NCBI GenBank assembly: GCA_023150835.1
Contig: JAKLKB010000157.1
Span: forward strand, 1 to 22,144
Direction of reading: 5' to 3'
Source: Myxococcota bacterium
GTDB taxonomy: Bacteria; Myxococcota_C; UBA6777
DNA: 22,144 bases
This document shows, one piece after another, positions 5,812 to 22,144 of this stretch. A program made the translations under genes and the position numbers. The notes below the pieces were generated by a model. The model did no database searches. It was not told where the DNA came from and worked only from the letters and a program-made list of their open reading frames with translations. The number at the start of each line of letters is the position of its first letter. Position 1 is the first letter of the stretch.

Positions 5812-6106
5812 GGGCGTTTTTGTATGCACAGCGCGATCTTTGCTCCCATCGCAAAAGCCGCTTCTCGATCTCCTTGATCGTGCGCGTCGATACACCCAAC
5901 GCCACACGACGCAAACTCCCTTCCTTTGGTGCGCTGTTTTTTTCCAACGCCCCCCTTTAACGCCCCCGCCTCTCTCGTAATAAAATCTTTTCTCCAAAGA
6001 ATACCAAGCGGTGCTATCCTACCTCAAACAGTTTTGGCCTCAACGACCCAACAAAACTGCCGATCCCAGTTTTCTCGTTCAGGACCTGCGCAGTCGATTC
6101 GGTTTT

Positions 6107-6163
6107 GTGGGGTTGGAACCCCACGCCCCACAAGGGAGCACCGCTCCCTTGACCCTGTATCGG
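6107..6163 (+). repeat. Dispersed double-hairpin repeat (family B), plus orientation
   Basis: Two strong adjacent hairpins lie here: GTGGGGT-TGGA-ACCCCAC (6107-6113/6118-6124) and AAGGGAGC-ACC-GCTCCCTT (6132-6139/6143-6150). The segment 6122-6163 aligns without gaps to the reverse complement of 4445-4486. It is intergenic, in the leader of the lipoprotein gene. It could be a structured RNA leader or a mobile hairpin repeat; its presence elsewhere in intergenic DNA favours the latter. Confidence 0.7.
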
Positions 6164-6192
6164 CGGGGTGATCCATTGTGTTTCAAACAAAC

Positions 6193-6230
6193 AGCCGTGC
6201 CGCTTGAAGTCCTGCGAACACGGCTTTTTT
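6193..6230 (+). terminator. Rho-independent-terminator-like hairpin in lipoprotein leader
   Basis: AGCCGTG (6193-6199) pairs with CACGGCT (6219-6225) across a 19-nt loop, followed by TTTTTT (6225-6230). No plus-strand gene ends just upstream, so it is either a leader attenuator, the end of a short unannotated transcript, or part of a repeat. The 17 nt GCGAACACGGCTTTTTT recur at 20835-20851, again upstream of a plus-strand gene. Confidence 0.55.
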
Positions 6231-6337
6231 GGCCACAAGTCACTCCTCTTGTTTTCTCCAAACCATCGTTTTGGATTCTACCGCGCAAACACGCCTCCTT
6301 CGGTGGCTTTGCGCTTCATCACACAAAGGACGTTAAC

Positions 6338-9016
6338 ATGAGACCACGCGAAAAAAACATCCGGATCTGGCAATGGATTTTTGTGTTTTCGTTTCTGCTG
6401 ATCCTCAACGGATGCCCCCCTGCCCCCATCACCCAAAGCGAAGAACTCAACAGCGACGCATCCTCCAACGTCGAAAAGCAAGAAAACGCCTCCGAAGCAA
6501 CACCCGAAGAACCCTCTTCGACCGAAGCCATCGAGGAACCCATCGGCGAACCTGCTCCCGACGCCACCACCGAACCCGCTCCCGACGCCACCACCGAACC
6601 CACCGCTGAAACCGACACCGAACCCGCTCCCGACGCCACCACCGAACCCACCGCTGAAACCGACACCGAACCCGCTCCTGACGCCACCACCGAACCTACC
6701 GCCGAAACCGACACCGAGCCTGCTCCTGACTCCACCACCGAACCCACCGCTGAGCCTGCTCCTGATGCCACCACCGAGCCTTCTCCCGAGATCAGCCCAG
6801 AACCCACTCCCGAAGGTGCCTGTGTCCCGGGCGAGACGCGGAATTGTTATTCGGGCCCCGCTGGAACAGAAGGCGTCGGAGCCTGTCGTGCAGGCTTCCA
6901 AGCCTGTACGCCTGCAGCCCAATGGTCAGCTTGCCAAGGAGAGGTCTTGCCCGCTGCCACCGAGCTTTGCGGCAATCAAATCGACGACAACTGCGACGGC
7001 AAAACCGACGCACAAGATCAAACCGCTTGCAGCTGCAACCCCGGCCAGACCCGTGACTGCTACACAGGCCCCACAGGAACAGCGGGCGTCGGCATCTGTA
7101 AAAAAGGGACGCAAACTTGCGACGCCAGCAGCGCATGGGGTGCCTGCCAAAACGAAGTCCTCCCGGGCGCAGAAGAGATCTGCGGAAACCAATTGGACGA
7201 TAACTGCGATGGCAAGACCGATACCGACGATGCAACGGTCTGTGAGTGCAAGCCTAACGAAACACGCTCTTGTTATACCGGACCCACCGGAACTTCTGGA
7301 AAAGGCGAGTGTAAAGCAGGAACTCAAACTTGCGGTGCCAACGGGAAATGGGGAACTTGCCAAGGCGATGTCTTGCCCACCACAGAAGCCTGCGACGGAA
7401 AAGACAACAACTGCGATGGAACCATCGACGAAGAAACGACCGCCGCTCCTTTGTGTGGAGCAGGGCAACGTTGCGTGACAGGCAAATGTTCTTGTGACGC
7501 CACTTCTTGTCCCAATGGTTGTTGTGCCAACGATACCTGCGTCACTCCCACCACCAACGCACAATGTGGAACAGCGGGAGCGGCCTGCATCCCTTGCGCA
7601 ACAGGCAACGTCTGTGATGCCGGAAGATGCGTTTGTAATGCCACGTCTTGCCCCAATGGCTGCTGTGATGTCAACGGTGTCTGCCAGAGCGGAACTTCCA
7701 ACACAAGCTGCGGCAAAAACGGCGTCGCTTGTGTCGCTTGTACGGGCGGCAAAGCCTGCGATCCACAATCCCAAGTCTGCGGATGCGGCCCCAACACCTG
7801 CGCCACAGGATGCTGCAACGCCCAAGGCGCTTGCACTACCTCTGTTCTTGCGTCCTGTGGTGTCGGCGGAAACGCCTGTATCGCCTGCGATACCAAAAAA
7901 GCCAACGTCTGCGATGGCGGTACTTGTAAGTGTGGAACCAACCCCGCCTGTACCACCGGCCAAGAATGTGTCAACGGCCAATGCGTCTGCAACGCCTCTT
8001 CTTGCCCCAACGGTTGTTGCAACAAAGCCGTCTGCGTCACCAACCGCACCACCACTCTTTGCGGTGCAGCAGGCGCTGCTTGTGCAGCCTGCACCACCAA
8101 CAAGGCCGACAATTGCAGCACAGGATCTTGTCGCTGCGGAAACACCACCGCTTGCACAGGCGAAGCCTCTTGCACCAACGGCCAATGCGTCTGCCCTGCC
8201 CTCCAAGTCAGCAACGTCTTCGTCAACAGAACCGCCTACACGCAAACCCCCATCGATGTCGTGCGCGGCGGAACCTTCAACGTCAGCTTGGCTTATAAAC
8301 TCACGCAAGTCCCCGGCTGTCCGACTTGTACCAACCAGATCGTTGTCGGCATCTACACCAAAGGATACGGACCTGACGCTGCAACCGCTTGCATCTACAA
8401 CGGCGGGGCCTCTTCTTGCCCCAACTCCACCAACGGAGCCGCGACCGTCAGCATCAATACCCCCCTCACACCGGGCGAATACGAGATCCGCGCTATCCGC
8501 GATCTCCAATTCAATTGCACCGACGCTCTCAACAACTTTAACCGCGCCTCCGATCTCAGCAACACGCTCGTGATCGCAAAGATCCGCGTCATCCCCTCCC
8601 CAACATGCCAAGCCCTCTCAGGCTATTTCACCAGCATCCGACTCAATGGCCAAGGCAACGAGATCACCGTCACCCCGGGCGCAAGCATCTCCGTCAGCGG
8701 CACCTACACCATGAGCCACTTTACGGGGTGTACCAACTGCCCCGCTCAACTCGTCGGCGGCTACACTCCCTTCATCGGCGGCGGGGGCAGCATCAAGATC
8801 GGCTGCTACCACAACGGCACCTTGGCGACTTGCCCAAGCGCCACCACACGAACCACCACGCTCACCTTTACCGCACCCACCGTCCAAGGCATCTACCACC
8901 TGCGATCTTCCGTCGATCGCCAACTGAGCCAATTCAACTGCACGAACGCCCGCTACGACGGTACGATCCGCCAAGCCACCTACGGCGTACTTCGCGTCCA
9001 ACTCCCCACACCTTAA
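6338..9016 (+). CDS. Secreted lipoprotein with MopE-like and Cys-rich repeats
   Basis: The product is 892 aa, from the ATG at 6338, seven bases after AAAGGA (6325-6330). A basic N-terminus and hydrophobic stretch (IWQWIFVFSFLLIL) end in a lipobox, L23-N-G-C26, so it is predicted to be lipid-anchored, probably in the outer membrane. Order: acidic Pro/Thr/Glu stalk (about 45-160) with 16-residue repeats; three repeats of about 70 aa (162-375) of the form CxPGxTRxCYxGPxGT...C...W..C..E/DVLP...E.C, ending in DDNCDGKTD or DNNCDGTIDEE, like the MopE-type metal-binding motif; a Cys-rich region (about 375-620) with CPNGCC...CG..G..C..C units; and two related beta-rich domains (about 621-755 and 757-892), each with a CxxC (GCPTCTNQ, GCTNCPAQ). 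This architecture is common in Myxococcota surface proteins. Adhesion or metal binding is inference. The long minus-strand frame opposite it is a shadow. Confidence 0.9.
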   Translation: MRPREKNIRIWQWIFVFSFLLILNGCPPAPITQSEELNSDASSNVEKQENASEATPEEPSSTEAIEEPIGEPAPDATTEPAPDATTEPTAETDTEPAPDATTEPTAETDTEPAPDATTEPTAETDTEPAPDSTTEPTAEPAPDATTEPSPEISPEPTPEGACVPGETRNCYSGPAGTEGVGACRAGFQACTPAAQWSACQGEVLPAATELCGNQIDDNCDGKTDAQDQTACSCNPGQTRDCYTGPTGTAGVGICKKGTQTCDASSAWGACQNEVLPGAEEICGNQLDDNCDGKTDTDDATVCECKPNETRSCYTGPTGTSGKGECKAGTQTCGANGKWGTCQGDVLPTTEACDGKDNNCDGTIDEETTAAPLCGAGQRCVTGKCSCDATSCPNGCCANDTCVTPTTNAQCGTAGAACIPCATGNVCDAGRCVCNATSCPNGCCDVNGVCQSGTSNTSCGKNGVACVACTGGKACDPQSQVCGCGPNTCATGCCNAQGACTTSVLASCGVGGNACIACDTKKANVCDGGTCKCGTNPACTTGQECVNGQCVCNASSCPNGCCNKAVCVTNRTTTLCGAAGAACAACTTNKADNCSTGSCRCGNTTACTGEASCTNGQCVCPALQVSNVFVNRTAYTQTPIDVVRGGTFNVSLAYKLTQVPGCPTCTNQIVVGIYTKGYGPDAATACIYNGGASSCPNSTNGAATVSINTPLTPGEYEIRAIRDLQFNCTDALNNFNRASDLSNTLVIAKIRVIPSPTCQALSGYFTSIRLNGQGNEITVTPGASISVSGTYTMSHFTGCTNCPAQLVGGYTPFIGGGGSIKIGCYHNGTLATCPSATTRTTTLTFTAPTVQGIYHLRSSVDRQLSQFNCTNARYDGTIRQATYGVLRVQLPTP
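6548..6781 (+). repeat. 48-bp tandem repeats coding the acidic stalk of the lipoprotein
   Basis: In-frame repeats of a 16-codon unit, EPAPDATTEPTAETDT, occupy 6572-6619, 6620-6667 and 6668-6715. They are preceded by a half unit at 6548-6571 and followed by diverged copies to about 6781. Silent differences accumulate toward the 3' end (CCC to CCT, GAA to GAG), so the 5' copies look youngest. The encoded stretch is acidic, proline-rich and probably an extended spacer between lipid anchor and first Cys domain. Confidence 0.9.
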
Positions 9017-9324
9017 ACCCCTTCCCACACTTTCATCCCTTCCCATACCCCCGATCGATCCTGCGATTGATTCGTATGCCGACTTCAGCGATCCCGACTC
9101 CTCCTTGCAAGGTCTTTGCAATTCGCTCAAAAAAATGTAACGCTGCTTATGCGAAATCCGCCTGTTGTATGATCGTAAAAGTGTAGGGGCAGCCCCCTGT
9201 GGCTGCCCAATCATAGGGCATCTACGTACTCTCCTTTGTGCATACATCACTTGGATATCGTATGAGAACGTTTGCAACACTTCTTTCGCGTGCGTTTGTT
9301 GATGCCTTTGTTGTGGAGGGCTGC
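9017..9324. other. Intergenic region with a 115-bp inverted-repeat element
   Basis: This is 308 nt between the lipoprotein stop and the histidine-kinase start. It holds a small hairpin, TTGCAA-GGTCT-TTGCAA (around 9105-9121), without a T-run, and a full miniature element at 9149-9263. The SD of the kinase gene, GGAGG, is at 9315-9319. No gene is supported here. Confidence 0.6.
9149..9263 (+). repeat. 115-bp MITE-like element (family A) with inner GC hairpin
   Basis: The left end ATGCGAAATCCG (9149-9160) is a near inverted match to the right end TGGATATCGTAT (9252-9263). The length equals that of the copies at 14281 and 14483. Inside is the family hairpin GGGCAGCC-CCCTGT-GGCTGCCC (9187-9194/9201-9208), preceded by TGATCGTAAAAGTGTAG. 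It ends 61 nt before the kinase start, so it may influence that operon's leader. Confidence 0.8.
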
Positions 9325-10786
9325 ATGCAAAAAACAGATCGCTGGCTGGCGATGCGTGTGGCATCGCTTTATGCCCTGTTTGGAGGACTCTGGATTCTTG
9401 TATCGGATCGTTTGTTAGCCCGATGGCTACTTGACACAAAAATGCTGACTCGTTGGCAAAGCTACAAAGGCTGGGCGTTTGTGCTGTTCAGCGCAATTTT
9501 GATCTACCTGCTTGTGAGCAAAACGTTGCAGTGGATCTCCTCGACGCGCCTGTACCTCAAAAAAGTCCTCGATAGCGTGACGGACGCCTTTCTCGTCATG
9601 GATCGAGATTGGCGCATCACCTTCATCAACCCAGAAGCTGCTCGCATCAACAAAAAACCACCCGCAGCTTTCTTGGGCAAGACCCACTGGGAGGAATGGC
9701 CCGCATCGGTGGGAACGGTCGTCGAAGAACAATATCGAAAAGCCATGAATGAACGCGTTGTTGTACACTTTGAACACCACTACTACGTCGCGGGCGAGTA
9801 CGACACTTGGCTCGATATCCGCGCTTATCCATACGAAGACGGACTGGCGCTACTTTACCGCGATATCACGGACGCTGTTCGCTCTCGCCAATCCCTGCAA
9901 CAACAAGCGCTCGAACTCCAAACCCTCCACGCCGAAGCCCAACAACGAGCCGGAGAACTCGCTATCTTGTACGAGCAAAAGCGCGATCTTGCCGAACAGC
10001 TCGAACAGCGCGTCGCAGAGCGCACCCGCGAGCTTGAGCTCGCCATGCAGCGCGCCGCATCCGCCGACCACCTCAAATCTGCGTTCCTCGCCTCCATGTC
10101 CCACGAACTACGTACCCCCCTCAATTCGATCATCGGCTTCACAGGTATACTGCTCGCTGAACTCGCAGGCCCCCTCAACCCCGAACAATCCAAACAGTTG
10201 GGCTGGGTTCAAGATAGCTCGCGCCATCTGCTCGCCCTGATCAACGATGTCTTGGATATCTCACGCATCGAAGCCGGCCAGCTTGAAGTCCGACTCGCCC
10301 CCTTTGAGATGCACACCGCCATCGAGCGCTGCATCCGCTTGGTTTCCGAATCAGCCCAAAAAAAAAGGGGTCCTGCTCTCTGTCTCCATCGACTCGCGGA
10401 TCGGCACTCCTCTCAGCGATCAACGCCGCGTTGAACAGATATTGATCAACCTCCTCAACAACGCCATCAAGTTCACACCTCGCGGCGAGATCCGTCTGTT
10501 CTGCCGCCCCTCCGATGGCTTTGTTGTCACCTCTGTCCAAGACACAGGCATCGGTATTCGCTCCGAAGATATCGAAAAACTCTTCTTGCCGTTCCGACAA
10601 ATCGACTCCGGATTAGATCGGCGCCACGAAGGCACAGGACTTGGACTTTCCATCTGCAAACGCCTTGTCGAAGCTCTCGGCGGCAAGATATGTGTCGAAA
10701 GTGTTTGGGAAAAAGGCAGTACGTTTACTTTCACCTTGCCGACTACAGCACAAGGATCCACCCATGCAAACGATACTGATCATTGA
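9325..10786 (+). CDS. Membrane PAS sensor histidine kinase, frameshifted in an A9 run
   Basis: This kinase would autophosphorylate on His and pass phosphate to a response regulator. The start at 9325 follows GGAGG (9315-9319). Two hydrophobic segments (about 10-32, 48-68) place a short N-terminus in the membrane. A PAS domain (about 80-190) and a coiled coil (about 190-250) follow. The HisKA motif has H260 in SMSHELRTPL. The first frame then reads through AAAAAAAAA (10358-10366) into unrelated sequence, stopping at 10434. The frame one base later carries the missing ATPase domain: N379 in LLNNAIKFT, D406 in DTGIGI, and GTGLGLSICK (G436) to the stop at 10786. Dropping one A gives a coherent 486-aa protein (...SAQKK-GVLLSV...). 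Either the A-run is miscounted, the gene is phase-variable or slippage-decoded, or it is a recent pseudogene. It overlaps the next gene by 23 nt. Confidence 0.85.
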
Positions 10787-11150
10787 AGACAACGAGCAAA
10801 ACCTGTATCTCTTGACGTTCATACTGGAGAAACACGGCTATGCGGTGATCTCCGCTCGCGATGGTTTACAAGGCGTCCAACTCGCCCAAACTCAACCGCT
10901 CGCTCTTATCCTCTTGGATATCCAATTGCCTCTCATGGACGGTTATGCTGTGGCTGCTTTGTTGCGTACCTACAACAGCCTTTCCCACACCCCCATCGTC
11001 GCAGTCACCTCCTACGCCATGTTTGGAGATCGAGAGCGCATCCTTGCCGCTGGATGTGATGGCTATATCGAAAAACCCATCAACCCCCAAACATTCGTTG
11101 AAGAGATCAACGAATACATCCGACGATCCTCCACTGCCTCCAGCGCTTGA
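10764..11150 (+). CDS. Single-domain response regulator (CheY/DivK-like)
   Basis: The product is 128 aa, a receiver domain only. The start at 10764 is seven bases after AAGGA (10752-10756) and lies inside the end of the kinase gene, so the two are translationally close and probably coupled. The receiver signature is complete: acidic pair E8-D9, phospho-acceptor D52 (ILLDIQLP), T82 (VTSYA) and K104 (EKPIN). There is no output domain, so it acts by protein contact or as a phosphorelay intermediate. The kinase upstream is the obvious phosphate donor, and the HD-GYP regulator 43 nt downstream a likely co-member of the pathway (inferred from context). Confidence 0.93.
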   Translation: MQTILIIEDNEQNLYLLTFILEKHGYAVISARDGLQGVQLAQTQPLALILLDIQLPLMDGYAVAALLRTYNSLSHTPIVAVTSYAMFGDRERILAAGCDGYIEKPINPQTFVEEINEYIRRSSTASSA

Positions 11151-11193
11151 ACCAGCCGCACCCTTGTTTCTCTACCCGTGAGGACTTGAATCC

Positions 11194-14127
11194 ATGAGCC
11201 AGATCCTTGTCGTAGACGATCTTCCCTCCAATCGTTATCTACTGCGTTCGATCTTGGAGGCCAAAGGCTACGGAGTATCCGAAGCCTCCAACGGAGCCGA
11301 CGCCTTGGAGATGATGCGTCAGTCTCCCCCTCAACTCATCATCTCCGACATCTTGATGCCCCAAATGGACGGCTTTGTTTTTTGCCGCCGTTGTAAGGCC
11401 GAACCTGCCTTTTGCCATATCCCTTTTATCTTCTTCACCGCCACCTACACCGATGATCGCGATCGCGATCTCGCCGCAAAACTCGGCGTACACTGCTTTC
11501 TCACCAAGCCTTTCGAGCAAGCCACCCTTCTTTCTTCTGTTCAACAAGCCCTCCACACACAACACAGCCCGCTCCCCTCCACGAACAACCCTCCCCCCGA
11601 AGAAACCGTGTTTTTCCGCCTCTACAACGAGGCTCTTGTGCGGAAGTTAGAAGAGAAGATGTTGGCCCTCGAACAAAGCCTCCATGCCCTCGAACAAAGT
11701 GAGCATCGCTTCGAGTGGATGGTCCAACACACCGCTGACCTGATCGTCGTGTTAGACAGCCAAGACACCATTCGATACGCCAGCCCAGCTTGCCAACGCA
11801 TCTTTGGCTGCACACCCGATGCGATGGTGGGTACACGCCTATCCGCCCACATCCACCCCGAAGATCGCCCTCTGCTCGAAAAACACTTGCGCACAGGATG
11901 GCCGTACGAGGATGCCTCTCCGTATTTTTTCGAATTGCGCGGTCTCGGCAGCAACGGGCGTATTGTCGATATCGAGGCTGTCGGATCACCCTTGGCCAAC
12001 TCCCCCGAACTCCATGCACACTTGGCCGATGCACGCTTGGCCAACTCCCCCGAACTCCACGCTCGCATCGTCAACATACGCGATATCTCCGAACGAACAC
12101 GCCAAGACAAGCTGCTGCGCTATCAATCCTCCATCCTACGAAGCATCCAAGAAAGCGTGATCGTCACCGACCTCTTCGGGGCGATCACCTACTGGAACCA
12201 AGGTGCCACCGCGATCTTTGGCTACACCCAAGACGAGATGTTGGCCCAAACCCCCGCGCTGCTCTACCCCGATCAAGATCCCCATGCCCTCGCTGCCGAT
12301 CTTCGCCAAGTCTTAGAAGGCAAGGACTACGTGGGCCGATGGAAGAGCAAAACCAAAGCAGGACAAACCGTTTGGGTGGATATCAAAACCAGCTTGATGC
12401 TCGATATCTATGGCAAACCAACGGGGTTTATCGGTGTGGCCAAAGACGTCACCGAACAAGCCCTCTCCGAAGAATCCCTGCGCAAGCGCCTGATCGAGAT
12501 GGAAGCTGTCTCAGTCCTCTCCTGCCATCTGCGTCAAGCACAAACCATCGAAAGCATCTTGCCCGTACTACTTGAACAAAGCCTCTCTGCTTTGGAACTC
12601 GACACAGGGTTTGTTTTGCTCACCCAACCCCCTCCCACCGACTTCTGCGTGACCGCCAAAGGCTGGCCTGCCTCCATCAAGATCTCAAAGGCCCAGCTCT
12701 CCGAAGGGATCACTGGGGCTGTGTTTCGTACAGGCAAACCCCACAAAACAACCGAGATCGTTTCCGATCCTCTTTTGTACAAACCTTTTCAAGAGATCAC
12801 CCCCGAAGGATGGGGCGGACTCTTTATCCCCATCCGCACCAGTACCACAACGATCGGCATCCTTTCCGTTTGCGCGCCTTCCACTCGCGAGTTCACCCAC
12901 GAAGAGGAGCGGCTGTTGCTGTCTCTGGCCGAGATCACAGGAACCGCCATCCAGCGCCTTTCCCTCCACCAAGAAACCAAAACACGCCTCCAACAATTGC
13001 AATCATTACAGAGGATCGACCAATCCATCGCTTCCAGTTTGGATCTGCGCGTGACTCTTCAGATCTTGCTTGAACAAGCTATCGCGCACCTCGGCGTCGA
13101 TGCCGCTGGCGTGTTGCTCCTTCAACCCAAGTCTGTTGTGCTTGCCCACGCAGCAAGCCGAGGGATAGACAGCCATCTCTACGGGCAAGCCCGCATCCGA
13201 CTCGGTGAAGGCATCGCTGGAAAAGCCGCTCTCGAACGCCACCCCAATATCTGCCACGATCTCCGTGTAGAGCCCGGTTTTATCCGAAAAAGCCTCCTCA
13301 GCGAGAAGCAGATCGTCGGGTACGCTGTCCTGCCTCTCCTCGCAAAAGGCCAAATCAAAGGCGTCTTGGAGATCTTCCACCGACAACCCTTTTATCCTGC
13401 CCCCGACGGATGGTCTTTCTTAGAAGCTCTTGCAGGACAAGCCGCCATCGCCATCGACAACGCCCAACTCTTCGACAACTTACAACGCTCCAATACCGAA
13501 CTGATCTTGGCTTACGACACCACCATCGAAGGTTGGTCTCATGCCCTCGATCTGCGCGACAAAGAAACCGAAGGACACACACGCCGCGTCACAGACATGA
13601 CGCTCCGATTGGCCCGTTCCATCGGAATGACCGAAGAAGAACTCGTCCATGTTCGGCGCGGTGCATTGCTCCATGACATCGGAAAGTTAGGCGTCCCTGA
13701 TGCGATTCTTCACAAGGCAGGCCCCCTCACCCCCGACGAATGGGTGATCATGCGCCAACATACCCAATTCGCCTACGACATGCTTTGGCCGATCACCTAC
13801 CTGCGACCTGCGATCGATATCCCCTTTTGCCACCACGAAAAATGGGACGGCACAGGCTACCCACGCGGACTCGAAGGCGAGCAGATCCCCCTCGCTGCAA
13901 GGCTTTTTGCCGTCGTCGATGTCTGGGATGCTTTGCGCTCTGATCGCCCCTACCGCAAAGGCTGGGAGCTTGAGCGCATCCTCGAATACATCCGTTCGCT
14001 CGATGGAACGCACTTTGACCCCCAAGCCGTCGCCACCTTCTTTGAGGTCGTGTCCAACCCTCACAACGAACCACACCCAAACCATCCAGAGCTTCTTTCC
14101 CGCCACGCCCCGCTCTCCTCGATATGA
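11194..14127 (+). CDS. REC-PAS-PAS-GAF-GAF-HD-GYP response regulator (c-di-GMP phosphodiesterase)
   Basis: HD-GYP proteins hydrolyse cyclic di-GMP, lowering this second messenger in the cytoplasm. The product is 977 aa, with its start at 11194 after a GAGG-type SD. Order: receiver (1-125) with D8-D9, phospho-acceptor D52 and K105; short linker and coiled coil; PAS 1 (about 166-300, FEWMVQHTADLIVVLD... to IVNIRDISERT); PAS 2 (about 310-430, ending VAKDVTEQ); GAF 1 (about 445-590); GAF 2 (about 610-760); HD-GYP (about 775-960) with H827-D828 (LHDIGKLGVPD), H880-H881 and the G888-Y-P890 motif in HHEKWDGTGYP, then VVDVWDALRSDRPYRKGW. All catalytic residues of the HD-GYP class are visible, so it should be active. 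A 24-bp direct repeat duplicates LANSPELHA inside PAS 1 (267-275 and 282-290). It is the last gene of the kinase operon. Confidence 0.95.
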   Translation: MSQILVVDDLPSNRYLLRSILEAKGYGVSEASNGADALEMMRQSPPQLIISDILMPQMDGFVFCRRCKAEPAFCHIPFIFFTATYTDDRDRDLAAKLGVHCFLTKPFEQATLLSSVQQALHTQHSPLPSTNNPPPEETVFFRLYNEALVRKLEEKMLALEQSLHALEQSEHRFEWMVQHTADLIVVLDSQDTIRYASPACQRIFGCTPDAMVGTRLSAHIHPEDRPLLEKHLRTGWPYEDASPYFFELRGLGSNGRIVDIEAVGSPLANSPELHAHLADARLANSPELHARIVNIRDISERTRQDKLLRYQSSILRSIQESVIVTDLFGAITYWNQGATAIFGYTQDEMLAQTPALLYPDQDPHALAADLRQVLEGKDYVGRWKSKTKAGQTVWVDIKTSLMLDIYGKPTGFIGVAKDVTEQALSEESLRKRLIEMEAVSVLSCHLRQAQTIESILPVLLEQSLSALELDTGFVLLTQPPPTDFCVTAKGWPASIKISKAQLSEGITGAVFRTGKPHKTTEIVSDPLLYKPFQEITPEGWGGLFIPIRTSTTTIGILSVCAPSTREFTHEEERLLLSLAEITGTAIQRLSLHQETKTRLQQLQSLQRIDQSIASSLDLRVTLQILLEQAIAHLGVDAAGVLLLQPKSVVLAHAASRGIDSHLYGQARIRLGEGIAGKAALERHPNICHDLRVEPGFIRKSLLSEKQIVGYAVLPLLAKGQIKGVLEIFHRQPFYPAPDGWSFLEALAGQAAIAIDNAQLFDNLQRSNTELILAYDTTIEGWSHALDLRDKETEGHTRRVTDMTLRLARSIGMTEEELVHVRRGALLHDIGKLGVPDAILHKAGPLTPDEWVIMRQHTQFAYDMLWPITYLRPAIDIPFCHHEKWDGTGYPRGLEGEQIPLAARLFAVVDVWDALRSDRPYRKGWELERILEYIRSLDGTHFDPQAVATFFEVVSNPHNEPHPNHPELLSRHAPLSSI
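11991..12059 (+). repeat. 24-bp direct repeat inside the first PAS domain
   Basis: CTTGGCCAACTCCCCCGAAC plus TCCA occurs at 11991-12014 and again, identical, at 12036-12059, with a partial third copy (CTTGGCCGATGCA) between them. The 45-nt period keeps frame and inserts 15 residues just before the last beta strand of PAS 1. Exact identity at silent positions suggests a recent duplication. Confidence 0.85.
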
Positions 14128-14177
14128 CCCAGTCGCCCCAAATCCCCGCGTTCGTGGACTTTCAATCGACATAGGAC

Positions 14178-14281
14178 TTACGCAGTTCGATACGAAAAAG
14201 GCAGATGTTCGGACGTGGGCGGTTCGCGAACCGCCCCTACAACGTTCTGATATCTCAGGGTTTCCCTTTTCAACTGCGTAA
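14178..14281. repeat. 104-bp element with 10-bp inverted termini and a long palindrome
   Basis: The termini TTACGCAGTT (14178-14187) and AACTGCGTAA (14272-14281) are perfect inverted repeats. Inside is a perfect 20-bp palindrome, GGGCGGTT-CGCG-AACCGCCC (14217-14236), followed by CCTACA as in the family A hairpins. Its last base is the first base of the next element, so the two abut. There is no transposase, so it would be a non-autonomous (MITE-like) element. Confidence 0.75.
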
Positions 14282-14395
14282 TACGATATCCGCTAGATGT
14301 GTGATCGAACAGATCGATAAAAATCCCCGTGGATCGGTAAGCGGGCCTATGCAATACGCCCCACCATACGGTAACAGAACACACGGATATCGTAT
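14281..14395. repeat. 115-bp MITE-like element (family A) with perfect 12-bp termini
   Basis: ATACGATATCCG (14281-14292) and CGGATATCGTAT (14384-14395) are perfect inverted repeats. The interior (TGTGTGATCGAACAGATCGAT...ATGCAATACGCCCCACCATACG) closely matches the copy at 14844-14957 and lacks the GGGCAGCC hairpin. Confidence 0.85.
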
Positions 14396-14433
14396 CACCT
14401 TTTTTATACAAGACATTTCCCCGAGAAACGGTC

Positions 14434-14455
14434 GGGCAGCCACGGGGGGCTGCCC
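14434..14455. repeat. Solitary family A hairpin
   Basis: GGGCAGCC-ACGGGG-GGCTGCCC has an 8-bp stem and 6-nt loop, followed by CCTACA. It is the same hairpin as in the array at 20531-20826, here without adjacent element termini in normal spacing. Confidence 0.8.
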
Positions 14456-14482
14456 CTACAAAAACAACGAATCCTACGGATG

Positions 14483-14597
14483 ATACGACATCCTGTTGTT
14501 GTATGCTCATGTCTACTCGATGATCCAGGTCCCGATAGACGGGCGGTTCACGAACAGACCCTACATCATCCGATCACCCATCCGGCGGATTTTGTAT
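14483..14597. repeat. 115-bp MITE-like element (family A), diverged copy
   Basis: The left end ATACGACATCCT (from 14483) and the right end CGGATTTTGTAT (14586-14597) are degenerate forms of the family termini. The spacing is again exactly 115 bp. The interior contains GGGCGGTTCACGAAC...CCCTACA, a decayed version of the palindrome in the 14178-14281 element. Confidence 0.65.
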
Positions 14598-14635
14598 GAT
14601 TTGCGTAACGTCAGCCCCGTCCCTGTAGGGACAGC

Positions 14636-14692
14636 CCCCATACGCGCCTTGTTAAGGTGGAAACCTCGTAGAGTCGGTCTTGATCGCCTTTT
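14636..14692. repeat. 57-bp dispersed repeat (family C), copy 2
   Basis: Identical by eye to 4495-4551, about 10.1 kb away. It is again followed by a pyrimidine-rich tract (14693-14720). It lies between family A elements. Confidence 0.85.
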
Positions 14693-14843
14693 TTTTCTCC
14701 CCCCCTCAATCCCCCCGGCCAACGGGGGGAAGTTGGAACGGGTAGCGTCTGCGTCTCGTGCATACAGCGTGCGTCGGGGGCAGCCCCCCGTGGATGCCCA
14801 ACCGACGGACGTTTTACACAACCATGTTCCCGTTTCTATCGTC

Positions 14844-14957
14844 ACGCGGGATCCGCATATTGTGTGATCGAGCAGAACGATGAACATCCCCGTGTATAGG
14901 GTCAGAGCGTATGCAATACACCCCATCGTACGTTAACGGAACACACGGATTTCGTAT
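14844..14957. repeat. 114-bp MITE-like element (family A)
   Basis: The left end ACGCGGGATCCG is degenerate; the right end CGGATTTCGTAT (14946-14957) is well kept. The interior matches the 14281-14395 copy in order and spacing (TGTGTGATCGA, ATCCCCGTG, TATGCAATAC, GGAACACACGG). Confidence 0.75.
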
Positions 14958-15154
14958 AAGTCCTATCGACAGTACTGTGGGCCTGAAAAACGCCCTACAC
15001 CCCGCGTTCCTTCAACCCTCACCGCGAAACACACCCAGCCCCGCACCTTTTCGCAACCTACGCTCGTTGCAGACGATAATTGCGAGATGTATCCTCTTGC
15101 CTTCGCTGCCGCACGACAAAACAAGCGGCAAAGCCCAAAAAACAGGAGCGTGGT

Positions 15155-18100
15155 ATGCCACGGATCGATCGGCCCCAAAACCATTTGCCGCAAAGAACGC
15201 CCTCGACTCTCGACAACAACGACAAGCTTTCTCGGCTAGTGGCTTCACAACCCCACCTCAAAACCTCCCAAGACCTGATCAATCACCTCTACGCACAAGG
15301 CGGCGGAACATGGGAAGGCGCAACCCGCAGCGCACGCGATCTCGGCGTCGATATCCAAGACCTCCTGCGTGATCGCCAAGCCGCTCTCAAACCACCCACA
15401 CCTTCGGCCTCTTCCAACACACCTTCGGCCTCTTCCAACACACCTTCGGCCTCTTCCAACACACCTTCGGCCTCTTCCAACACACCTTCGGCCTCTTCCA
15501 ACACACCTTCGGCCTCTTCCAACACACCTTCGGCCTCTTCCCGCAAACCGCTTCGAGGCTCCGCGCCCCGAACAGGACACCTTGCTCGGTCGAACCTCTT
15601 CCCCTGCCTCTTCCTCCACCCTTCCCAACGCCACCCACCAGCCGAGCCGCAATGTCCGCGCTCTCGCACTCGAAAGCCTCGCTCAACCCACCCTCACAGG
15701 ATTACGCGATGCGGCTTTGTCCCCACTCGCGGATCTCCAAGCCATCAAAAACAATCTTGCCCAAGGGATCGCCCCTGACCCCTTGTCTCTCGTCGGCCAA
15801 ATGAAAGACGGGGATATCCGTATGTCTGTCCCCTTGACCAAAGAGATGATCAACAACGGCATGTTGAAACTTGGCGACAACGCACGCGCAGAAGTGTCTT
15901 TCGCCGTCAAAGACGGACAGATCGACTTCTCAAAAACTCGCGTCGATCTCCAAGACGTCCGCGCACTCGGACTCTTCAAAGTCAAAGGACTGGAGATCGA
16001 TCGCAATGGTCGTTTGCGCGCCGATACGATCTTCCGCCCCGATGTCACCAAGAAATTGCTCGGAGCCGATCGCATCCCTCCCACGATGGAAGGGCTGTCT
16101 CAAGTCCTCAAAGCCCAAAGCGAGCGCAGCAACGGTGCAGCAGGCTCCTTTCCTCTGCCCAACGATATCCTGATCCAAGCCGAAGGCATCGCGTTGCGCA
16201 CCGATCGCCCGATCTCTTTGGGCGGCGGAAACCTGCTCGATCTCAAAGAAGGAACCCGCGTCGATCTCCAAGGCGATCTCCGCCACGCCACCCTCACAGG
16301 ACGCGGTGGCATCGACCAATTGAAACTCGAAGGCCAAGGCTCCAAGATCGATCTCGGTTCGGGACAGATCGCCTTTCGCGCAGAGATGGATCGCGATGCA
16401 CAAGGCCATATCCGCGCCGATCTACAGATCGATCGGGCGGATGTTGCGGTGCGATCACTCCAACACCAAAGCCGAAGCGAACGCTTGCAAGTCGAACAGG
16501 CCGGACTGCGCAACGGGCAGATCCGCGCACAAGTCAACATCGACGCCGACGGCAAGCCGCAGATCGGCTCCGTCCAACTCAACGGCGAACTGGCCGCATC
16601 CTCGGTGCAATTGGAAAAAGAAGGCCAAGTCTCTCTTGCGGCCCGCGATCTGCGCGCCAATGTCAGCCTGACCGAAGATGGACGCCAACTTAGCCAAGGC
16701 CCCGACCGCATCCGATTGACGGGAGTGGATGCGACGGTGGATCGCTTGTACGTGCAAAGCGCAAAGGGTGATCGCGCCGAGATGCGCGGAACCATCGAAG
16801 ACGCCAGCTTCGGGCAAGAGCGCACCAGCCAAGCGGCCCCCACACCTTACGCGGAGATTCCGCGCTTTCAAGGCACCCTCAGCGGCCAATTGCAGCGCGA
16901 TCCAGACGGACGCAAAGCCGAAGTCACCCTCCAAGAAGCCACCGTATCAGGTTCTGTGCGTGCGGATGCTCGGGGGATTGCAGCAGACGTACAGGTCGAG
17001 CGCGTCGATACCTCGGTGCGCGATCTGGCGGTCTCGCATGGCGGCCACAGCGTCGATATCCGCGAAGGCTCGTTGGTGGGGCGCGGTGATGTAGCCTTGG
17101 GTGGGGGGGGACTACAAGCCGATGCTTCGGGGCGTGTGCGTGGATCGTTGCGCGATGGAAAGATCGATCTCGGTGCCTTGGGGCGCGTCGATCTCGCCGA
17201 TGGCACCCAAGCCGATCTACACGTCGATCGCGCAAAATTCGGATCACAGGGCATCCAAGACCTTTCGGCCAAAGGCACCGCCAGCATCGGCGTGGATGAC
17301 GGTCGCATCCGCCTCAATGGCCTTGGAGAGATCGATATCGCCCGAGGTTCCCGCGCAGATGTCGAGGTCTTGTCCTCTACATTGGGACCGCGCCTGAACG
17401 AAGGCCGCTTTGAAGCGCGTGGCCGAATCCAAGGGGGATTGGATCGTGGAACCCTACGCCTCGGCGATATCGCCGATGTCGATCTCCAAGGCACACGCTT
17501 CGATCTCGACCTCAAGCACATCGAGAAAAAACCCAACCAAGCCCTCCCCTCGCTGCGTGGGGATATGAAGCTTGAAACCGACATGGCCGTCGGCCTTCGC
17601 CAAGCCCTCAAGACGCGACTCGGTGAGACCGCTGTCAAGGATATCGAAGGTCGCGTCGCTCTCGATCTCAAAGATGTCCTAGTCGACGGCACAGGCCGCG
17701 TCAACATCGAACGCGCTGGCGTCCAACTTGACGCCAAGATCGGCGAGATATCCGGCAAGATCAACCTCGATCCGCAAGCCTTGCGCCTCCCCTCCACCAC
17801 CCCTTCGACCGCACACCCCTCTGCTGTCACCACTCCTTCGACTGCACACGCCACTTCCGCCGCGCCTTCGGCCGCTCTCTCCAACGTAGCACGCCTTGAT
17901 GCCTCCAAGCCCGTTATCGATCAACCCCTTGCCATCGACCCGATGGCGATCGCCAAACGCATCCAAAACGGTGTCGTCGATGTCGAGCTTCCGATCCAAG
18001 AGGCCGGGATCGAAAACACCACCAAGATCCTCGGTCTGCGCACCTTGGATGTCGCTCCTGACACCAAACTGATCGCCAAGCTCCATGTCGAAGATGGCCG

Positions 18101-19598
18101 TATCAACTACGAAAAAAGCAGCATCCGCTTAAACAAGCCGATCGAAGCCCTCGGGATGTTCGACCTCAACCTGCCCCGCATCAACAAAGACGGCAAAGTC
18201 GTGGTCGGTGTCATGGGCAAAGATATCAACATCACAAACTGGGTACTCGGACGCGAACAACTCCCAAGCCGCGTCTCCAACTTTGTCGATGAAGCCGCCT
18301 CTTGGCAAAAATCCTCCACAGGCGGCTCCGTCGATATCCAACGCTCCCTCGATCAAGCAGGACGCTTCGCATCGCTCGGTGGCTTGAGCTTCAAAGCCCA
18401 AGGTGTCTCTCTTGCTCCCGGGCGTTTGCAGATCGGCGACAACGATTACATCGAACTCGACGGCTCCAACCGTGTCGACCTCCAAGGAAACGCTCAACAG
18501 GTCTCGATCAAAGGTGAACTCCCCGCCAACAAAACCTTCGTCGATCTGGGCGGAAGCCGCTTGGATATCGCAGAAGGCCGTGTCCGTTTCGAGGCCGATA
18601 TCCAAACGGGACTCTCGACCACAGGCCGACTTGATGGCGCCTCACAGATCGACGTCCGCCTCGCCATCCCCAAAGCCTCCGTCAACGAGCTTTATCACGC
18701 CCGCGACAACGGCGATCACTTCCACCTCAAGTCCGGCGAGATCCAAGACGCCCAACTCCACCTACAACACCGATTCAACGTCCAAAACGACGGCACCCTT
18801 CGATCCAAAACCTCGCCCAAAGTCGATCTTTCGGTGGGCCGCTTTGTCGGAAAGATGGGCGCAAGCGAGATCACCCTGCGCAACTCAGACGGAACACCCG
18901 CCAAGATGGCTCTCCAAGAAGCACAAGCCTCTGGAAGCCTCCGCGCCGATACCAACGGCCTCACCGCCGCTCTCGATCTTTCCGCAGTCAAAGCCTCCTT
19001 GCGTGGCCTCGATCTCGACGCCGTCGGCCAAAAGATCGTCGACTTGGATGGTTCTCTACAAGGCGCAGGCCGCTTGTCGCTCGATCCACGCACAGGATTC
19101 AACCTCGACGGAAACTTCCAGATCGACGGAAACGTCCAAGACGCCCGTATCCGCATGGGAAACCACGTCGACTTGGATCTCAGCACCAACAGCCAAGCCT
19201 CGATCGCTCTACGCAAACTCGGCTTTGGACCCCAAGGTTTGCGCCTTGATGGTGATCTGACCGTCGACGCCGGACTCGATCGCGGCTCCATGCAAGTCGG
19301 CGATCGCCCTCCCCTTCGCTTCGAAAAAGGTTCCTCTTTGCGTATGTCCTCGCACCTCAAACACGATGACCTCGGCCCCTCCCTTACCCTCAACGGCCAC
19401 CTCCACGCCAAACTCGCTCACGGCCAAAGCCTCGGCGCTGTCGACACTTCACGCGGCACGCTCGACGCCAGTCTCGACGGCGGCATCGCTGATATCAACC
19501 TCGGCGATATCACCCTCCAGCCTGATGGAGCCTACAAGATCAAAGATCCTTCCATCTCCCTGCGCCTTGACTTGAGCAAGCTCTCCCTCCACCAATAA
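15155..19598 (+). CDS. Very large repetitive beta-rich protein, two related modules, one apparent frameshift
   Basis: The ATG at 15155 follows AGGAG (15144-15148) by six bases and begins MPRIDRPQNHLPQRTPS. This frame gives a helical N-terminal region (DLINHLYAQGGGTWEGATRS...) and PSASSNT repeats (codons 83-129). It then becomes nonsense after about 15542 and stops at 15778. The frame one base further on is open from about 15369 to 19598 and encodes the rest. Dropping one C of CCC (15540-15542) joins them as SASS-ANRFEAPRPEQ, giving about 1480 aa. There are two related modules: about 208-877 and about 928-1480, separated by a Ser/Thr/Ala/Pro linker. Both alternate short strands and 'G.IDLG / VDL.G' turns, in the style of AsmA/TamB-like or other repetitive beta proteins. 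I see no signal peptide, membrane segment or catalytic motif. Function is unknown; a long beta scaffold is inference. Confidence 0.8.
15401..15541 (+). repeat. 21-bp tandem repeat, about 6.7 copies, encoding PSASSNT
   Basis: The unit CCTTCGGCCTCTTCCAACACA starts at 15401, 15422, 15443, 15464, 15485 and 15506, with a partial seventh copy at 15527-15541. Copies are identical. In the N-terminal frame they read PSASSNT, in the downstream frame HLRPLPT. Because 21 is divisible by three, copy-number change alone cannot explain the frame switch that occurs at or near its 3' end. Confidence 0.95.
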
Positions 19599-19676
19599 GC
19601 CGCCTCGCATCCACCACAAACTGATGCGCACAGCCCTTTGGCGTACACCATCTGTCGTCATCCGTCGGCGCTGCTC

Positions 19677-19707
19677 AAAGGGCCGATGCCTACGGCCCTT
19701 TGGAGGT
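19677..19707 (+). promoter_or_regulatory. Hairpin abutting the Shine-Dalgarno of the next gene
   Basis: AAAGGGCCG (19677-19685) pairs perfectly with CGGCCCTTT (19693-19701) across a 7-nt loop. The next bases are GGAGGT (19702-19707), the SD of the gene at 19715. A 9-bp GC-rich stem directly 5' of an SD could stabilise the mRNA end or modulate initiation. It has only a TTT tail, so a terminator role is less likely. Confidence 0.55.
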
Positions 19708-19714
19708 AGCCCCT

Positions 19715-20464
19715 ATGGCCCTACAAGATATCCTCGACTTGCTACGAAACAGCCCGCTCGATACCAGCTTTGTATTGCGCCTTGGCGAGATCCCCGCACC
19801 TTTGCTCCACCACTTCGCCTGCGATTGTGCCGAGCGCGTCTTTCTTCATCCCGCATCTCTCGGCGGATGCCCTCCCCTGCCCTTGCGCCAACTCCTCCAC
19901 GCCAAACGCGCTTGGATCGAAGGCTCCCTCCCCAACCAACAACTCCAAGAACACCTCGACGCCACACAAACGCTGCTCTCCGATCCCTCTGATGCTGTCT
20001 TGGCCGTCCTTCGTGCTGCTTCACTTGATCCCGCTTACGCTGCCCTCCAAGCCTCTCAAAAAGCCGCGTGGGCTTGCTTTGAGCAGACCTTTGACCAAGA
20101 ACTCGAACACACCGAACAACGCTTCCGCACTCACGACATCCTCGGCCCCTTGTTCGGTGAAGCCCCCCTTGGAGCCGCCTTGCGCGCTGTCGGCCTCGCC
20201 GTCCTCACACCCCGCAAAACCGCCTCCCTCCTCCTCCAAAGCCTCCGCGACGAAGTCGTCGAAGTCGTTGATGACTTTCAACGCTCCTTTTCTTCCCGCC
20301 GCCTCGAAGCCGATTGGCAACGACAACACCTGATCTCCTTACTCTCCACCTACCAACAACACCGCGCCCGTCTGTTGTCCTTGCTCTACCAACGCGCCTT
20401 AGAAAAAGATCAAACCTTTCGACGCGCTCGCTTTCTTCTCGAAGCCTCTCTCTTTTCCACCTAA
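19715..20464 (+). CDS. Hypothetical helical protein
   Basis: The product is 249 aa. I chose the ATG at 19715 over the TTG at 19700 because GGAGGT (19702-19707) lies seven bases upstream. The sequence is rich in Leu, Ala, Arg and Gln and looks helical throughout (MALQDILDLLRNSPLDTSFVLRLGEIPAPLLHHFACD..., later QDFQ/QHRARLLSLLYQRALEKDQTFRR). There is no signal peptide, membrane segment or catalytic motif. Three Cys lie in the first 60 residues (CDCAE, GGCPP) without a clear zinc-site spacing. It is 116 nt downstream of the large repeat protein on the same strand, so co-transcription is plausible. I do not recognise the family. Confidence 0.75.
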   Translation: MALQDILDLLRNSPLDTSFVLRLGEIPAPLLHHFACDCAERVFLHPASLGGCPPLPLRQLLHAKRAWIEGSLPNQQLQEHLDATQTLLSDPSDAVLAVLRAASLDPAYAALQASQKAAWACFEQTFDQELEHTEQRFRTHDILGPLFGEAPLGAALRAVGLAVLTPRKTASLLLQSLRDEVVEVVDDFQRSFSSRRLEADWQRQHLISLLSTYQQHRARLLSLLYQRALEKDQTFRRARFLLEASLFST

Positions 20465-20504
20465 GCGTTTGTTCAATGGGTTTGTTTTTTTGTTTTTTGT
20501 TTTT

Positions 20505-20521
20505 GTGGGGCGCTGCCCCAC
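20505..20521. repeat. GC hairpin shared with family B
   Basis: GTGGGGC-GCT-GCCCCAC has a 7-bp stem and 3-nt loop. The reverse complement of the hairpin at 4484-4499 has the same core (TGGGGCGCTGCCCCA). It directly follows a 24-nt T/G-rich tract and is followed by ACCCCGCAAGGGCTGCCCC leading into the array. Confidence 0.7.
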
Positions 20522-20530
20522 ACCCCGCAA

Positions 20531-20826
20531 GGGCTGCCCCTACACCGTTACGGTAACGCTATCGGCGGATCTCGTATAATAGGGCAGCCACAGGGGGCTG
20601 CCCCTACACCGTTACGGTAACGCTATCGGCGGATCTCGTATAATAGGGCAGCCACAGGGGGCTACCCCTACATCTTTACGATCACACAACAGGCGGATCT
20701 CGTATAATAGGGCAGCCACAGGGGGCTGCCCCTACACCGTTACGGTAACACAACAGGCGGATCTCGTATAATAGGGCAGCCACTGCCCCTACACCGTTAC
20801 GGTAACACAACAGGCGGATCTCGTAT
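20531..20826 (-). repeat. Five-unit tandem array of family A half-elements
   Basis: Units end in GGCGGATCTCGTAT at 20576, 20641, 20705, 20769 and 20826, a period of 64-65 bp; the last is 57 bp. Each complete unit carries the hairpin GGGCAGCC-ACAGGG-GGCTGCCC, then CCTACACCGTTACGGTAAC (itself palindromic), then the terminus. Unit 3 has a changed hairpin (GGCTACCC) and CATCTTTACGATC; unit 5 has lost six bases of the hairpin. In reverse complement the unit matches the left half of the elements at 9149 and 21724. Confidence 0.9.
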
Positions 20827-20831
20827 CAAGT

Positions 20832-20852
20832 GCCGCGAACACGGCTTTTTTT
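20832..20852 (+). terminator. Weak terminator-like hairpin
   Basis: GCCG (20832-20835) pairs with CGGC (20842-20845) across CGAACA, followed by seven T (20846-20852). The sequence is the 6193-6230 structure minus 12 nt of its loop region: GTGCCGC...GAACACGGCTTTTTT is kept. The 4-bp stem makes function uncertain. Confidence 0.4.
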
Positions 20853-20943
20853 GACCGTGCAAACGCAAACTCCAGAACCACCCTCCCCAAAGAAAGGACG
20901 GCGCTCCCTCCCCCAGCAAGGAGGTCTCCGCGCCGAAGAGTCC

Positions 20944-21684
20944 ATGAAAGACTTATCCGCGACACAACACAACACCCAAGCCGCCTACGAAAAACATCTC
21001 GCCGCCTTCCAATCCGTCCCCCGCGATCAAGCTATCTTGCCCATCTATTCGATCTCTGATTCGATCTTTTTGGGCTTGTGGGTCGCCAAACACGCAGAAC
21101 AAGACCATCAACGCCTCAAAAAACTCCACGATATCGGCGAGATCCACTACGACCTCATCGAATCCCTCCACTCGTTGGTCCTTGGTTTGTGGCACGCACA
21201 AACCCTCTGGCAAAACGCACGCAAACACACCTCCAACAAACCTCAAAAAACCACCCACAAACAAGCCGTCGCCCTACGCAAAGAACTCCTCGAAGCCGCC
21301 GACTACGTTTGGCGCGCTGATCCCGATATCAAAAACATCCTCAAAGATATCCGCAAAGGCTCCGGGGCACAGAACCTCGCCGAAGATATCCAACGCCTTG
21401 TCGCTGTCTTCGAAGATCACTGGGCCGATGCCGACGGGCGATGCGCTATCTCCTATCAAGACCTCGCATCTGCCGAACAACTCGCTCTCTCCCTCCTTCA
21501 CGGCACCGTGACGGATGGCCCCCACAACTCGCTCGTGATCCGCAACCAAGCCTTTGTCCTCTTCCACCGCTCCTACAAAGAAACCTGCGACGCTGGCCGC
21601 TTTCTCTATCGCAACGACCCTCCCACCGCCGCCAAACGATACCCCCGCCTCCAACATCTCAAATCTTCTTCCCTCCCCCAATAA
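20944..21684 (+). CDS. Hypothetical protein, His-rich helical N-terminal half
   Basis: The product is 246 aa from the ATG at 20944 (MKDLSATQHNTQAAYEKHLAAF). A strong AAGGAGGT (20918-20925) lies 18 nt upstream, farther than normal, with no ATG/GTG/TTG at the ideal distance; the nearer GAAGAG (20935-20940) is weak. Residues 30-100 contain many spaced His (AKHAEQDHQRLKKLHDIGEI, HYDLIESLHSLVLGLWHAQ), which could be a metal site in a helical bundle, but no known motif is matched. The C-terminal half has DLASAEQLALSLLHG and HNSLVIRNQAFVLFHRSYKE. No membrane segment or signal peptide is seen. It is the third unassigned plus-strand gene in a row. Its stop codon overlaps the start of an inverted-repeat element (21684). 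Confidence 0.75.
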   Translation: MKDLSATQHNTQAAYEKHLAAFQSVPRDQAILPIYSISDSIFLGLWVAKHAEQDHQRLKKLHDIGEIHYDLIESLHSLVLGLWHAQTLWQNARKHTSNKPQKTTHKQAVALRKELLEAADYVWRADPDIKNILKDIRKGSGAQNLAEDIQRLVAVFEDHWADADGRCAISYQDLASAEQLALSLLHGTVTDGPHNSLVIRNQAFVLFHRSYKETCDAGRFLYRNDPPTAAKRYPRLQHLKSSSLPQ

Positions 21685-21722
21685 TACGGTATCCGAGTGG
21701 TGTGTACACGGATATCTCGTAT
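21684..21722. repeat. 39-bp miniature with family A termini
   Basis: ATACGGTATCCG (21684-21695) and CGGATATCTCGTAT (21709-21722) are family A termini separated by only 13 nt. It begins at the last base of the preceding gene's TAA stop codon and is directly followed by the full element at 21724, so it looks like an internally deleted copy. Confidence 0.7.
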
Positions 21723-21723
21723 C

Positions 21724-21846
21724 ATACGAAATCCGCCTATTGCGTGATCGTAAAACGTAGGGGCAGACAGGTGTGGCTGCCCAACCACAGGGCAGTTACA
21801 GCGGATCGCACCGACCCTTCGTGTACACATCTTTCGGATATCGTAT
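21724..21846 (+). repeat. 123-bp MITE-like element (family A)
   Basis: ATACGAAATCCG (21724-21735) and CGGATATCGTAT (21835-21846) are the inverted termini. The left part (CCTATTGCGTGATCGTAAAACGTAGGGGCAG) matches the 9149 copy. The inner hairpin is altered (GGGGCAGACAGGTGTGGCTGCCC). Confidence 0.8.
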
Positions 21847-22144
21847 CAGAGGGTGTCTAAAACAGTGAGATCTTTTGGACTGGTACACATAAACATCGAA
21901 GGATTGGCGCTCTTCTTACCCCTCACCCCCCCAGCCCCCCTCTCCCCGCTTGCTGCGCTGCGGAGGCGAGGGGGGAGAAAAGCGGAACATCCGAAAGGAT
22001 GGTGAAGGATTGCAAACTTTGCCTTGCATCGAAGACGGGTGGAACGAAAGAATAGAAGAGAAAGAAAAGCAGACAATGCATAAAAAGACGGATAATCCGC
22101 ATGATTTGTCTTATTCTTTCCCCCTCTCTACGCAGCGATTCTTA
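21847..22144. other. Right-end intergenic sequence with a nested GC hairpin, no gene seen
   Basis: The main structure is CCCCCCTC (21936-21943) pairing with GAGGGGGG (21969-21976), enclosing CCGC/GCGG (21947-21950/21961-21964). It has the look of an intergenic hairpin repeat rather than a terminator: no T-run follows on the plus strand. Short open frames on both strands read as non-coding. The final 100 nt are purine-rich then AT-rich and may precede a gene beyond the window. Confidence 0.5.

What the first reader, a model, noticed from the sequence alone, without database searches (positions are those of the whole stretch)
14178..21846. Miniature inverted-repeat element family with 12-bp termini and fixed 115-bp length
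Three copies are exactly 115 bp (9149-9263, 14281-14395, 14483-14597), one is 114 bp (14844-14957), one 123 bp (21724-21846) and one a 39-bp deletion form (21684-21722). All share termini ATACGAAATCCG / CGGATATCGTAT. Interiors vary: some carry the GGGCAGCC/GGCTGCCC hairpin, others a different conserved core. Constant length with divergent interiors and TIRs is typical of MITEs mobilised in trans. All copies are intergenic and no transposase is in the window. The family is dense around the unassigned genes at 15155-21684.
Basis: seen in the sequence. Interest (0 to 1): 0.65.

Follow-up and report, generated by a model that had tools for sequence, protein, structure and literature searches.

The report
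Bacterial MITE family with TNA duplications
The repeated 113-bp pieces are a genuine family of about 500 tiny "passenger" transposons that each duplicated a 3-letter TNA target on insertion, and their ends match a cyanobacterial insertion sequence of an IS630-type group, which names the enzyme most likely to have moved them.

Summary
The genome (same genus as Myxococcota MAG KLAP109) has about 510 full-length copies by extrapolation, with 113- and ~121-bp length classes. Among 60 copies with TNA on both sides, 42 repeat the same triplet (shuffled mean 15.7, maximum 28). Empty sites show insertion directly: in relative G001 two adjacent copies are missing and one TCA and one TAA remain, and a neighbouring repeat unit lacks a copy at TTA. 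In the window, three copies sit as a block inside TAA of a second repeat that has its own 6-bp duplication. So this is a MITE family, not a REP/BIME family, although 59 of 93 full copies carry a GTAG-type REP hairpin. Cyanobacterial elements share the ends; one 1,260-bp copy holds a broken IS630-family transposase, and eight related IS630 elements have TAC/TAT-starting ends with identical TNA flanks, not the canonical TA. No mobilising transposase was found in the 15% of the genome read; IS630 was not searched genome-wide.

The parts
9150..9262 (+). MITE copy, 113 bp, carries a GTAG-type REP hairpin at 9183-9208; flanks TTA / TGA
14282..14394 (+). MITE copy, 113 bp, rare interior without REP hairpin; flanks TAA / TCA; left edge of the block inserted in TAA of the interrupted second repeat
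14484..14596 (+). MITE copy, 113 bp, most divergent interior; identical flanks TGA / TGA
14845..14956 (+). MITE copy, 112 bp, same rare interior as 14282-14394 (82% identical); left end degenerate; flanks TCA / TAA; right edge of the inserted block
14279..14281 (.). TAA target duplication, left copy, of the block 14282-14956
14957..14959 (.). TAA target duplication, right copy, of the block 14282-14956
14172..14281 (.). left part of a second, unrelated 116-bp inverted-repeat element (TAGGACTTACGCAGTT...AACTGCGTAAGTCCTA) interrupted by the MITE block; its last 6 bases are at 14960-14965 and its own 6-bp duplication TCGACA is at 14166-14171 and 14966-14971
20564..20825 (-). tandem array of truncated MITE left halves (end plus REP), about 64-bp period, five left ends, joined through TTA/TAA
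21685..21721 (+). internally deleted MITE, 37 bp, flanks TAA / TCA
21725..21845 (+). MITE copy, 121 bp class, REP hairpin at 21757-21782, identical flanks TCA / TCA

Best explanation
A high-copy MITE family: non-autonomous DNA transposons of about 113 bp with imperfect terminal inverted repeats of about 26 bp (TACGA[A/T]ATCCG at the tip, GTGTGATCG further in) that insert by a staggered 3-bp cut at TNA and duplicate it (shown by flanks and empty sites). They were most likely moved in trans by a DDE transposase of an IS630-annotated subgroup whose elements begin with TAC and duplicate TNA (inferred from shared termini, one cyanobacterial element with both ends and a transposase, and target duplications of relatives). 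After insertion, copies were targets for further insertions, merged into short tandem arrays, and drifted to about 75% median identity. Many carry a GTAG-REP hairpin, probably captured once in the founder of the main subfamily and amplified with it (inferred).
For: Copy number and boundaries. TNA duplication: 42 of 60 copies with the same triplet, shuffled mean 15.7, maximum 28 of 2000; TAA, TGA, TCA and TTA all used. Orthologous double empty site C99 versus G001 and paralogous empty site on C17; nested insertion into another MITE in G001 with TCA duplicated; block inserted in TAA of another repeat in the window. Autonomous candidate: 1,260-bp element in Xenococcaceae MO_188.B19 with identical 11-bp ends, NF033545 IS630 transposase E 1.7e-33 and HTH_33/DDE_3. 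Eight related IS630 elements from cyanobacteria, Thermus, Deinococcus and Alphaproteobacteria have ends starting TAC/TAT and identical TNA flanks; two Thermus empty sites match the TNA junction over the full query length. Methylocystis and D. grandis ends (TACGGATTCCGG, TACGGACTCCGATT) resemble the MITE ends.
Against: The transposase link is by termini and target, not by a transposase in this genome: tblastn found none in 1.12 Mb of own and 0.74 Mb of G001 DNA, and no whole-genome IS630 search was left. The cyanobacterial IS copy is broken and its flanks differ (TAA/TCA). IS5-type elements also duplicate TNA-like sites and occur here (L083: GAGGGTGTTTGCGA ends, TTA duplicated).
Confidence: 0.78

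Rival explanations
1. The MITEs are mobilised by an IS5 / PIF-Harbinger-type transposase, the best-known group with TNA-like 3-bp duplications (from established knowledge).
For: TNA duplication; an IS5-like element with GAGGGTGT ends and TTA duplication lies beside MITEs in this genome and a similar end abuts the copy at 21845.
Against: None of the 5 own, 12 same-family or 30 cyanobacterial DDE_Tnp_1 loci examined has TACGAWATCCG ends paired around a transposase; the L083 pairs are separate nearby MITEs. DDE_Tnp_4 is absent from the own genome. The one element found with these ends at both sides and a transposase carries IS630, not IS5.
Confidence: 0.12
2. They are REP/BIME palindromes spread by a RAYT tyrosine transposase.
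For: 59 of 93 full copies contain a GTAG-tagged REP-like hairpin, and 55 more hairpins lie outside full copies; GTAG repeats are known in many phyla (PMC3733652).
Against: Boundaries coincide with the 11-bp inverted termini, not with the hairpin; 3-bp target duplications and precise empty sites; a subfamily in the window has no REP.
Confidence: 0.04
3. The repeats are kept mainly as a structured RNA or terminator, mobility being secondary or ancient.
For: The consensus folds into one long hairpin (-49.3 kcal/mol, z -5.7); copies avoid predicted ORFs and often lie between convergent genes.
Against: A palindromic consensus folds well by construction; individual window copies range from z -1.0 to -3.0; no Rfam match; empty sites show that sites exist without them.
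Confidence: 0.06

Closest known systems
Nezha MITEs of cyanobacteria (Zhou 2008, cited in PMC10969869 and PMC3733652)
   Same: Small non-autonomous inverted-repeat elements in bacteria thought to be mobilised in trans by an insertion sequence
   Different: Sequence not compared here; host group differs
ERIC, Correia/NEMIS and RUP MITEs (PMC10969869, PMC3733652)
   Same: High-copy, mostly intergenic bacterial MITEs; ERIC reaches 711 copies in Photorhabdus (PMC10969869)
   Different: Different termini; from general knowledge the Correia/RUP target is TA, here it is TNA by empty sites
IS630 family insertion sequences (ISY100, PMC2170065)
   Same: The candidate mobiliser is hit by the NCBIfam IS630 model and Pfam DDE_3
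   Different: ISY100/IS630 duplicate TA; here and in eight related IS630-annotated elements the duplication is TNA
QMITE2 of Coxiella (PMC10969869) and the palindromes holding GTAG-15 repeats in Anabaena variabilis (PMC3733652)
   Same: An inverted-repeat element that carries a GTAG-type REP
   Different: Different sequence and host

Membership tests
MITE | Short, non-coding, terminal inverted repeats | tested here: met
   113-bp consensus with inverted ends
MITE | Many dispersed copies with coincident boundaries | tested here: met
   93 full copies in 1.12 Mb, about 510 extrapolated
MITE | Target-site duplication and precise empty sites | tested here: met
   TNA
MITE | Autonomous element with the same ends | tested here: inconclusive
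   Found in a cyanobacterium (broken gene); none in the sampled 15% of this genome
IS630-derived MITE | Ends match an element with an IS630 transposase | tested here: met
   Identical 11-bp ends in Xenococcaceae MO_188.B19
IS630-derived MITE | TA dinucleotide duplication (canonical IS630/Tc1/mariner) | tested here: not met
   TNA duplicated instead; the related IS630-annotated elements also duplicate TNA
REP/BIME mobilised by RAYT | No target duplication; unit bounded by the REP | tested here: not met
   Duplication present, boundaries are the 11-bp ends; RAYT presence not tested
IS5/PIF-Harbinger-derived MITE | Ends match an element with an IS5-type (DDE_Tnp_1/DDE_Tnp_4) transposase | tested here: not met
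   No such pairing among the transposase loci of the own genome, same-family genomes and three cyanobacteria

The most novel reading that the evidence does not exclude
A broad clade of IS630-annotated transposons in cyanobacteria, Deinococcota and Alphaproteobacteria, with ends beginning TAC (or TAT), makes a 3-bp TNA target duplication rather than the TA taken as the hallmark of the IS630/Tc1/mariner superfamily; its MITEs, sharing an 11-bp end across phyla, have spread to hundreds of copies in a Myxococcota-labelled genus and carry REP hairpins as passengers.
Probability: 0.55. Interest if true: 0.55.

Novelty: new member of a known kind. Interest (0 to 1): 0.42.

Why it matters
It turns an unassigned repeat into a mobile-element family with a demonstrated target rule and a testable mobiliser. 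If the TNA rule holds for the IS630 subgroup, a textbook hallmark (TA duplication) does not apply to a widespread clade, and the ends of those elements may be placed wrongly in annotation. The family probably contributes to the assembly fragmentation of this genome and gives a case of one MITE end sequence shared between Myxococcota-labelled genomes and Cyanobacteria.

Tried and rejected
Transposase families with 3-bp duplications were looked for first: DDE_Tnp_1, DDE_Tnp_4, ISAzo13 (PF07592; uninformative because its control was silent) and rve; the loci were examined and none had convincing TACGAWATCCG ends paired around the transposase. Long end pairs in 1.12 Mb of own DNA gave no autonomous copy. 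Copy counts included both strands of the palindrome and were replaced. The match of window 21848-22144 in G001 C444 looked like an orthologous empty site but is a copy of another repeat. G001 C68 lacks window 9031-15015, but the break is not at MITE ends, so it says nothing about the MITEs. Searching the literature for the end sequence gave only unrelated papers, and no paper linking IS630 with a 3-bp TNA target was found. The consensus has no match in plasmids. The transposase fragment had no match in phages and no confirmed relative in viral contigs.

Full report
Observation. The six copies are present at the given coordinates. Exact element boundaries are one base inside those given, because the outermost A and T belong to a duplicated target. 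12-mers close to the terminus are far above chance in the window (16 versus 0-2 in shuffles), and a left-end pattern matches 687 times in the 7.56-Mb genome with zero control matches; 83 perfect two-ended pairs exist.

The family. A profile from 113-bp copies gives the consensus TACGAAATCCGCCCGTTGTGTGATCGTAAAGATGTAGGGGCAGCCCCCTGTGGCTGCCCAATAATAGGGCGTCTACGCACTATCCTTCGATCACACATCACTCGGATATCGTA. After removing double counting of the two strands, 93 full copies lie in 1.12 Mb of own DNA (about 510 in the genome, extrapolated from unselected contigs) and 33 in 0.74 Mb of the same-genus relative G001. Lengths cluster at 112-114 and 119-122 bp. Median pairwise identity is about 75%, with nearest neighbours up to 99% (array copies) and about 97% for dispersed copies, so activity was spread over time. 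G001 is the MAG 'Myxococcota bacterium isolate KLAP109'; no exact two-ended match was found in the three same-family genomes.

Target duplication. Immediately outside the 11-bp ends both sides read TNA; in 60 of 93 copies both triplets fit and in 42 they are identical, against 15.7 expected on shuffling (maximum 28 in 2000), while only 3 are complementary as a longer inverted repeat would need. Empty sites prove insertion. In C99 two copies lie twelve bases apart (…GTGTCG[A]TCAGTCCGATAA[B]TAAGAAG…), and the orthologous G001 site reads …GTGTCAGCCCAATAAGAAG…, with both copies absent and single TCA and TAA. A C17 copy in GGATTA[..]TTATTCGGG has an adjacent repeat unit GGATTATTCGGG. One G001 copy sits inside another MITE with TCA duplicated.

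The window cluster. Copies 14282-14394, 14484-14596 and 14845-14956 form a block with TAA on both outer sides. The block interrupts a different 116-bp inverted-repeat element (TAGGACTTACGCAGTT…AACTGCGTAAGTCCTA), intact elsewhere in this genome and in G001, which has its own 6-bp duplication TCGACA. The order of events inside the block is not resolved: the two outer copies belong to one rare subfamily, so either a composite unit moved or one insertion was later expanded.

Interior. 59 of 93 full copies carry a GTAG-type REP hairpin (GTAGGGGCAGCCCCCTGTGGCTGCCC), and 55 such hairpins in the sampled own DNA lie outside full MITEs. GTAG-tagged repeats and their occasional association with palindromic elements are described (PMC3733652), and QMITE2 of Coxiella is said to hold one (PMC10969869). 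The conserved position in this family suggests one capture followed by amplification (inference). The array at about 20564-20825 consists of end-plus-REP half elements.

Who moves them. A scan of 84,980 species for the two-ended pattern found, besides KLAP109, only cyanobacteria (Spirulina sp. CS-785/01, Xenococcaceae MO_188.B19, Coleofasciculaceae RL_1_1). Their interiors are unrelated to ours and they are flanked by TNA, with identical triplets in one of five pairs. In the Xenococcaceae genome two such ends lie 1,260 bp apart around a broken transposase that matches NCBIfam IS630 (E 1.7e-33) and Pfam HTH_33/DDE_3. Related IS630-annotated elements from public plasmids (about 30-44% identity by tblastn) were then examined for ends and duplications. 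All eight with recognisable ends start with TAC or TAT and have identical TNA flanks: ISAva6 TAA, Stanieria TAA, Thermus TGA, D. peraridilitoris TCA, D. grandis TCA, Paracoccus TTA, Rhodovastum TCA, Methylocystis TGA. Ends could not be recognised for four others (C. aponinum, Azospirillum, T. oshimai, D. wulumuqiensis). Of 12 further Thermus records (10 distinct sites) all have TNA on both sides and 8 records (7 sites) have identical triplets. Joined flanks with a single TCA match unoccupied Thermus plasmids over their full length at two sites (100% identity at one); a third had no empty counterpart. Canonical IS630 elements such as ISY100 duplicate TA (PMC2170065), and a Thermus survey lists a 2-bp repeat for the IS630 element ISTth6 (PMC6352166); I did not establish that ISTth6 is the Thermus element examined here, and ISfinder could not be consulted.

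Limits. The own genome could not be searched whole for IS630; tblastn over 15% of it and part of G001 found none. Mobilisation in trans by an IS630-subgroup transposase is therefore inferred. Intergenic location was tested only against simple ORF calls: 20 of 93 copies fall in predicted ORFs that cover 86% of the sequence, so copies avoid ORFs strongly but the ORF calls are crude.

Verdict. A new family of a known kind (MITE), with an unusually clear demonstration of its target rule and a likely mobiliser group whose TNA duplication deserves attention.

Noticed in passing
window 14166-14171, 14172-14281, 14960-14971: A second repeat family of 116 bp (TAGGACTTACGCAGTT...AACTGCGTAAGTCCTA) with a 6-bp direct repeat (TCGACA here, TCTAAA in G001 L183); about 20 partial or full matches in G001.
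   Followed up: partly
window 21846-22144 (contig end); L083 1463-1877: Ends GAGGGTGTCTAAAACAGTG / GAGGGTGTTTGCGAAAAAGTG of IS5-like elements abut MITE copies and share their TNA; L083 has a 415-bp copy with a DDE_Tnp_1 remnant and TTA on both sides.
   Followed up: partly
window 9031-15015 versus G001 C68 about 1953-2011: A 6-kb block with a histidine kinase and a response-regulator/HD gene is replaced by about 60 bp in the same-genus relative, with conserved flanks at 90-93% identity; the breaks are not at MITE ends.
   Followed up: no
G001 C41:141-255 and C372:19122-19235: The REP hairpin core inside the MITE is inverted relative to the other copies (GGCAGCCACAGGGGGCTGCC instead of GGCAGCCCCCTGTGGCTGCC).
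   Followed up: no
own contigs C227, C120, C28, C42, C208 and others: Many contigs end within a few hundred bases of tandem MITE copies, so the assembly probably breaks at these arrays and copy number is underestimated.
   Followed up: no
window 6011-9016: Large protein with MopE-type metal-binding motifs (PF11617) next to ClpA/B-like and signalling genes.
   Followed up: no
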